Shown: one piece after another, positions 47,290 through 47,907 of the stretch
How positions within the stretch are numbered: the first letter of the stretch is position 1
Layout of the letters: every line of letters begins with the position of its first letter
DNA from: Altererythrobacter sp. Root672
GTDB lineage: Bacteria; Pseudomonadota; Alphaproteobacteria; Sphingomonadales; Sphingomonadaceae
Direction of reading: 5' to 3'
Length of the DNA: 64,000 nt
Assembly: GCF_001427865.1 (NCBI RefSeq)
Contig: NZ_LMHH01000001.1
Span: forward strand, 1,550,001 to 1,614,000
Made by a program: the position numbers and the translations under genes
The notes under the pieces: generated by a model
What the model saw: only the letters and a program-made list of their open reading frames with translations
What the model was told of the DNA's origin: nothing
Databases searched by the model: none

Positions 47290-47907
47290 ATGGCAGCAGA
47301 AGCACCGGCGCGGCCCGAGCGAATTAAGAATGAGCCCTTGCCCGCGATACCCACGACCGATGACACCAACGCCGACCAGGCGTCCGTCAAACTCTCGCAC
47401 TATCGGACGGGTCTTTCCCATCACCGCACCGACCTCTCAGAGCATCGTACCGATCTGTCCGAATACCGGACCGACCTTTCGGACGAACGCACCGAAATGG
47501 CGATGCGCCGGACGGGCATGGCAATCCATCGGACGCGAATGGCCGCGGACCGTACGCTCATGGCGTTCATCCGGACGTCTCTCTCGCTGATCGGGTTCGG
47601 CTTCACCCTCAACGAAGTGTTCAAGAGGGCGATAGAGGCGGGCGCGATACATAACGCGCAGTCGGCCCGTAATTTCGGCCTCACGCTGATTGTCCTTGGC
47701 ATCCTGTTGCTGGTGGGCGGTATCCTGCGCCACCTGCAATTTTCGCACGAACTCCGGGCACGGCGCCGCGAGTTGGTCGAAGATCATCTCATCCATGGCC
47801 AAAGCACTTATCCGATCTCGACTACGCTCCTGACCGCCATCGCCCTGTTGCTGGTGGGTGTGTTGGCGGTCGCGAGCATCGTCTTCGACATCAGTTTCCT
47901 CGGGTGA
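47290..47907 (+). CDS. DUF202 membrane protein with nine N-terminal RT heptads
   Basis: 205 residues. Residues 35-97 are nine consecutive heptads of the form [LM]-[SA]-x-x-R-T-x, with Arg-Thr at 39/40, 46/47, 53/54, 60/61, 67/68, 74/75, 81/82, 88/89 and 95/96. The last heptads merge into the DUF202 signature DRTLMAFIRTSLSLIGFG. Three hydrophobic segments follow, at about 96-108, 130-147 and 178-200. The heptads probably extend an amphipathic helix ahead of the first membrane span. GGGAG precedes the ATG. A second DUF202 gene follows by 16 bases. Confidence 0.8.
   Translation: MAAEAPARPERIKNEPLPAIPTTDDTNADQASVKLSHYRTGLSHHRTDLSEHRTDLSEYRTDLSDERTEMAMRRTGMAIHRTRMAADRTLMAFIRTSLSLIGFGFTLNEVFKRAIEAGAIHNAQSARNFGLTLIVLGILLLVGGILRHLQFSHELRARRRELVEDHLIHGQSTYPISTTLLTAIALLLVGVLAVASIVFDISFLG
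47392..47580 (+). repeat. Tandem 21-base coding repeat (nine units)
   Basis: Nine in-frame 21-base units encode the RT heptads of the DUF202 protein. The first five (LSHYRTG to LSDERTE) are most alike; the later ones grade into the normal DUF202 signature, as expected if the array grew by duplication from it. Confidence 0.85.

What the first reader, a model, noticed from the sequence alone, without database searches (positions are those of the whole stretch)
47392..47580. Nine RT heptads grown from the DUF202 signature
Residues 35-97 repeat [LM][SA]xxRTx nine times without a break, and the last units are the normal DUF202 signature. The regular Arg-Thr phase predicts a positively charged helical face of about 9 nm next to the membrane. 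I do not know of a described DUF202 protein with this array.
Basis: seen in the sequence. Interest (0 to 1): 0.6.

Follow-up and report, generated by a model that had tools for sequence, protein, structure and literature searches.

The report
Arginine-lined helix extension of DUF202
A small bacterial membrane protein carries nine back-to-back seven-residue units whose arginines continue the pattern that lines the polyphosphate pore of yeast VTC, so it may extend an anion channel into the cell; relatives carry 4 to 14 units and mostly sit beside sulfatase genes.

Summary
Residues 35-97 (47392-47580) of a 205-aa DUF202 protein are nine unbroken [LM][SA]xxRTx heptads; units 7-9 are the normal DUF202 start. 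It is not unique. The same subfamily in other Alphaproteobacteria and Xanthomonadaceae-type Gammaproteobacteria has 4, 9, 10, 12 or 14 units, always in whole 7-residue steps; a cyanobacterial relative has 10; generic DUF202 proteins have 2-5. Number is fixed (9) in the three sampled congeners that have the gene. The array is old: DNA units are 54% identical with drifted third bases, while Ser (120/120), Arg (120/120) and Thr (119/120) are almost invariant. AlphaFold2 gives one continuous helix, residues 28-116, running from the array into TM1. The Pfam profile places yeast Vtc1 K24 and R31, which line the VTC polyphosphate pore, on R81 and R88 (units 7 and 8), so units 1-6 continue the pore phase. 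Long-array genes lie within about 8 kb of arylsulfatase or formylglycine-generating-enzyme genes in 19 of 22 loci (generic DUF202: 1 of 20); in Leptolyngbya, array-DUF202 and an SBF transporter are one protein. Best reading: an arginine-ringed cytoplasmic vestibule of a DUF202 anion conduit. Oligomer, substrate and transport are inferred. New variant of a known kind.

The parts
47392..47580 (+). nine in-phase [LM][SA]xxRTx heptads (residues 35-97)
47290..47907 (+). array-bearing DUF202 protein, 205 aa; predicted helix 28-116 (array + TM1), TM2 within helix 124-164, TM3 within helix 178-198
47530..47745 (+). DUF202 (PF02656) domain, residues 81-152; units 7-9 of the array are its beginning
47924..48346 (+). 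second DUF202 protein, 140 aa from ATG 47924, three RT units, 16 bases downstream of the first: probable co-subunit
46092..46976 (-). SBF (sodium/bile-acid symporter family) transporter, divergent neighbour; its homologue is fused to array-DUF202 in Leptolyngbya
45723..46079 (-). DUF1622 membrane protein, three predicted helices, conserved neighbour
44911..45720 (-). barrel-like transporter protein without a Pfam match (start inferred at the internal ATG that follows the DUF1622 stop)
43912..44907 (-). formylglycine-generating-enzyme-like (FGE-sulfatase) protein, conserved neighbour
42088..43089 (+). Phenol_MetA_deg-type protein, recurrent neighbour
49507..50592 (+). HisKA_3 histidine kinase, recurrent in the neighbourhood
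51565..52437 (-). DUF2092 predicted periplasmic protein, recurrent in the neighbourhood
52525..53184 (-). response regulator (named from its sequence, not family-searched here; similar genes recur in related loci)

Best explanation
The nine heptads are a helical cytoplasmic extension of TM1 of a DUF202 protein. In yeast VTC, a solved DUF202 complex, five TM1 helices form the polyphosphate pore, and the basic residues of Vtc1 that line its cytoplasmic half are one heptad apart. The array carries that spacing on through nine positions, so a DUF202 oligomer, possibly with the second DUF202 protein as a subunit, would form a coiled-coil tube with stacked Arg (and Ser) rings in the lumen and Leu and Thr at the helix-helix seams. 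The tube would be an electropositive vestibule, up to about 6 nm beyond the pore, that draws an anion or anionic polymer to the channel. The genes around it suggest a service to sulfatase maturation and to sulfate-ester or phosphate-ester use. Shown: sequence, conservation, phase, predicted continuous helix, profile match to the VTC pore positions, gene neighbourhood. Inferred: oligomer, lumen-facing Arg, anion transport, substrate.
For: 1) Pfam DUF202 position 1 is K24 in yeast Vtc1 and R81 here; K24 and R31 line the VTC pore and channel-residue mutants lose vacuolar polyP (PMC9911596). R31 then corresponds to R88, and the structural alignment with 9umg_C starts at 78 against 21, the same offset of 57. 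2) AF2 helix 28-116 is unbroken, block pLDDT 75-93 over array and TM1. 3) In 120 extension units S is 120/120, R 120/120, T 119/120, Leu or Tyr 116/120; the other three positions vary. With S=a and R=d, the conserved positions are g, a, d, e, the four that take part in interfaces of helical barrels (PMC6175849). 4) All arrays step back from TM1 by exact sevens, 4 to 14 units. 5) The 19/22 against 1/20 sulfatase/FGE neighbourhood and the Leptolyngbya DUF202-SBF fusion. 6) Several array loci encode two or more DUF202 proteins, as a hetero-oligomer would need.
Against: No oligomer could be modelled. The structural match to VTC is weak (Foldseek rank 1 but E 1.3; VIA Z 7-8, most VTC rows with rmsd near 8.5), so the VTC link rests on the Pfam profile. 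Five Arg per ring would repel strongly without a bound anion. The array lacks the aliphatic a/d residues usual for coiled coils. No VTC polymerase domain was found in this genome; PPK is encoded elsewhere, so nothing ties polyP to the locus. Short 4-unit members share the neighbourhood (9/13), so the long array is not essential to it. Helical-wheel clustering of the conserved positions is only mildly improbable (5.6% of orderings).
Confidence: 0.42

Rival explanations
1. The array is an assembly rod or docking strut. The conserved face binds a partner (second DUF202 protein, SBF transporter or a cytoplasmic protein), and the Arg pair with acidic residues on the partner; no anion passes along it.
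For: Outer positions are rich in Asp/Glu/His/Tyr; paired DUF202 genes and the SBF fusion; L109 joins a 12-unit DUF202 array to a response-regulator receiver domain, which fits signalling or docking as well as transport.
Against: A docking strut would not need Arg, Ser and Thr identical in practically every unit, nor exact continuation of the pore-facing phase.
Confidence: 0.33
2. The array is a cytoplasmic anion-binding sensor or store (polyphosphate, nucleotide, nucleic acid, sulfated compound) that gates the neighbouring transporter rather than conducting.
For: Regular Arg/Ser/Thr face suits phosphate or sulfate groups; MshEN- and receiver-domain fusions of other DUF202 arrays; HK/RR genes at many loci.
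Against: No direct binding evidence; the phase identity with the VTC pore points to the lumen.
Confidence: 0.15
3. The array is an amphipathic helix on the membrane surface that binds lipid head groups.
For: Arg on one face, next to TM1.
Against: Mean hydrophobicity -0.40 to -0.52 and moment 0.09-0.23; AF2 makes it one helix with TM1.
Confidence: 0.06
4. Neutral repeat expansion by replication slippage without function.
For: Unit number varies between genera.
Against: Unit DNA is only 54% identical, third bases agree in 33% of comparisons at invariant codons; against the two congeners, array units 1-5 show 12 and 18 synonymously changed codons against 2 and 3 amino-acid changes.
Confidence: 0.03

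Closest known systems
Pfam PF02656 DUF202 (E. coli YidG/YidH type)
   Same: Profile match 57.3 bits against a 23.4 cut-off; RT-rich first helix; three helices; often two adjacent DUF202 genes
   Different: Nine units against 2-5 in generic members; sulfatase-linked cluster
VTC polyphosphate complex, Vtc1 TM domain (PDB 7ytj, 8i6v, 9umg)
   Same: Same Pfam domain; pore-lining K24/R31 align with R81/R88
   Different: No SPX or polymerase domain in this protein, no VTC domain found in this genome; basic heptad series is nine long against two in Vtc1
Alpha-helical barrels (COMP, CC-Hex; PMC6175849)
   Same: Conservation at g, a, d, e; variable b, c, f
   Different: Ser/Arg rather than aliphatic a/d; oligomer not shown
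Subfamily members in Neorhizobium (WP_037145520), Phenylobacterium and Lysobacter, and the Leptolyngbya relative (WP_225907736)
   Same: Same array and DUF202 core; mostly the same neighbours
   Different: 9, 10 or 12 units; Leptolyngbya copy fused to SBF. The two plasmid copies are annotated only as DUF202 domain-containing protein

Membership tests
DUF202 (PF02656) | Profile match above Pfam's curated cut-off | tested here: met
   57.3 bits, cut-off 23.4, residues 81-152
DUF202 (PF02656) | Three long hydrophobic helices, the first opening with RT motifs | tested here: met
   AF2 helices 28-116, 124-164, 178-198; membrane insertion and topology themselves not tested
VTC complex TM subunit | Basic residues at the Vtc1 K24 and R31 pore positions | tested here: met
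   R81 and R88 by Pfam profile coordinates, assuming no gap in the first eight positions; same offset in VIA alignment
VTC complex TM subunit | TTM polymerase (VTC) domain in the system | tested here: not met
   PF09359 not found in own genome; in Pfam this protein has only DUF202 above cut-off
VTC complex TM subunit | Pentameric channel | not testable with these tools
   No multimer prediction available
VTC complex TM subunit | Shared fold by structural comparison | tested here: inconclusive
   A VTC chain is Foldseek rank 1 but at E 1.3; VIA Z 7.3-7.9 among unrelated helical bundles
Alpha-helical barrel coiled coil | Heptad pattern with interface residues at g, a, d, e | tested here: met
   Information 3.5, 4.3, 4.3, 4.3 bits at these positions against 1.6-2.2 elsewhere; the register was assigned from this pattern, so it is not an independent test
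Alpha-helical barrel coiled coil | Hydrophobic a/d core | tested here: not met
   a = Ser, d = Arg in the extension units

The most novel reading that the evidence does not exclude
A natural, length-tunable arginine-ring tube: DUF202 oligomers whose 4 to 14 heptads set the length of an electropositive cytoplasmic conduit feeding anions to a membrane pore, in an undescribed sulfatase-FGE-DUF1622-SBF module.
Probability: 0.27. Interest if true: 0.78.

Novelty: new variant of a known kind. Interest (0 to 1): 0.5.

Why it matters
DUF202 is widespread, and I found almost no assigned mechanism for bacterial members. The array gives a direct, testable link from bacterial DUF202 to the pore mechanism solved in yeast VTC, and a natural series (4, 9, 10, 12, 14 units) in which to test how pore-phase arginines work. 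The conserved neighbourhood also names likely partners (DUF1622, SBF transporter, sulfatase, FGE) for proteins of unknown function.

Tried and rejected
Direct sequence search of solved structures with the protein and with an alignment found nothing; the VTC link came from the shared Pfam profile. Membrane-surface helix disfavoured on hydrophobic moment. Slippage artefact rejected on codon drift. PolyP synthesis at the locus: no VTC domain found in the genome. DUF1622 fold gave no clear relative. Papers: none of the DUF202 papers that I opened describes an array; DUF1622 gives one hit, which I did not open.

Full report
OBSERVATION. The ORF at 47290-47907 (+) encodes 205 aa with DUF202 at residues 81-152. 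Residues 35-97 are nine consecutive [LM][SA]xxRTx heptads, DNA 47392-47580 exactly as stated. No shuffle of the protein in 100,000 gave more than three in-phase RT. TRF does not see the array because the DNA of the units is only 54% identical on average; at the Ser, Arg and Thr codons of units 1-5 the first two bases always agree and the third agrees in one third of comparisons. So the array is old and kept by selection on the protein.

RELATIVES. Two congeneric genomes have 89% and 85% identical proteins, both with nine units; three other congeners have no close homologue. In a sample of about 400 genomes of the phylum, five (the own genome included) carry a member. Family-level searches around two of these, plus a plasmid search and a DNA-pattern scan, gave 34 subfamily members: 13 short ones with 4 units and 21 long ones with 9, 10, 12 or 14. 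None had 5-8 in this sample. Generic DUF202 proteins, mostly from other genomes of the phylum, have 2-5. Every array steps back from TM1 in exact sevens. The first unit (mostly YSxYRTx) and the last five are well conserved; extra units sit in the middle. On a tree of the core domain, one well-supported clade of four holds 9, 10, 12 and 14 units (the rest of the tree is poorly resolved). Arrays also occur outside this subfamily: the Leptolyngbya plasmid protein WP_225907736 has ten units and is fused to an SBF transporter; L109 has twelve RT/RS units, DUF202 and a response-regulator receiver; L133 has three DUF202 stretches with a MshEN domain, and L071 and L087 resemble it by eye.

ANATOMY. 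AlphaFold2 on an 18-sequence alignment gives a single helix from 28 to 116, then helices 124-164 and 178-198, mean pLDDT 82.7. In 120 extension units Ser is 120/120, Arg 120/120, Thr 119/120 and the first position Leu in 99 and Tyr in 17. Calling Ser a and Arg d puts Leu at g and Thr at e; the variable positions are b, c and f. PMC6175849 states that e and g sites join a and d in the interfaces of higher-order coiled coils such as COMP. The array has low hydrophobicity and moment and is not net positive.

MECHANISM. Pfam profile position 1 falls on K24 of yeast Vtc1 and on R81 here. PMC9911596 reports that five TM1 helices form the VTC pore, that K24 and R31 of Vtc1 line its upper part, and that channel-residue mutants lose vacuolar polyP. 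K24 and R31 are seven apart. R31 maps to R88 if the profile alignment has no gap between, and the structure-based alignment with 9umg_C starts with the same offset. Units 1-6 therefore continue the pore-facing phase for about 6 nm into the cytoplasm. That the array makes an Arg-lined vestibule in an oligomer is inference; no oligomer was modelled.

CONTEXT. Within about 8 kb, arylsulfatase or FGE genes lie near 19 of 22 long-array loci, 9 of 13 short-array loci and 1 of 20 generic DUF202 loci. DUF1622 is near 15 of 22. Loci are not all independent (congeners, two loci of one genome), and some contigs or fetched stretches are short. In this window FGE, a barrel protein, DUF1622 and SBF lie on the minus strand and the two DUF202 genes on the plus strand, 16 bases apart. 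Sulfatases 78-83% identical to the Neorhizobium neighbour lie elsewhere in the same genome. At L334 a HAD-family gene sits between sulfatase and FGE.

KNOWN. E. coli yidH deletion mutants have lower NADPH, higher cellular iron and a peroxide-sensitive phenotype (PMC4054840), and YidH came up in a D-alanine-exporter screen but did not lower intracellular D-Ala (PMC10299036). Of the 14 papers that hold a word beginning with DUF202, I searched four for it: one names it as a domain of yeast VTC4, the passages in the other three concern DUF202x families; none describes an array. Subscription literature was not searched.

VERDICT. A real, conserved, recurrent feature of a DUF202 subfamily, not a one-off. 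New variant of a known kind; mechanism plausible and testable but not shown.

Noticed in passing
window 50663-51568 (-): 301-aa probable secreted protein with GGGMSR repeats and DRQ/NRQ-type repeats (TRF period 33, 3.2 copies), next to the DUF2092 gene.
   Followed up: no
L109 minus strand: 360-aa protein: twelve RT/RS heptads, DUF202 and a response-regulator receiver domain; an array outside the subfamily.
   Followed up: partly
L071, L087, L133: Proteins with repeated DUF202-like stretches, with 5-6 RT heptads each; L133 has three DUF202 stretches and a MshEN domain.
   Followed up: partly
L259 2398-5434: Leptolyngbya plasmid with four DUF202 genes close together, one fused to SBF, next to DUF1622 and FGE.
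   Followed up: partly
window 45723-46079 (-): DUF1622 family: strongly conserved Asp and IRT motif, three predicted helices, no clear structural relative.
   Followed up: partly
G000:C1 about 1869-1873 kb (L279, L280): Neighbouring arylsulfatases 78-83% identical to a Neorhizobium cluster sulfatase, away from the window.
   Followed up: no
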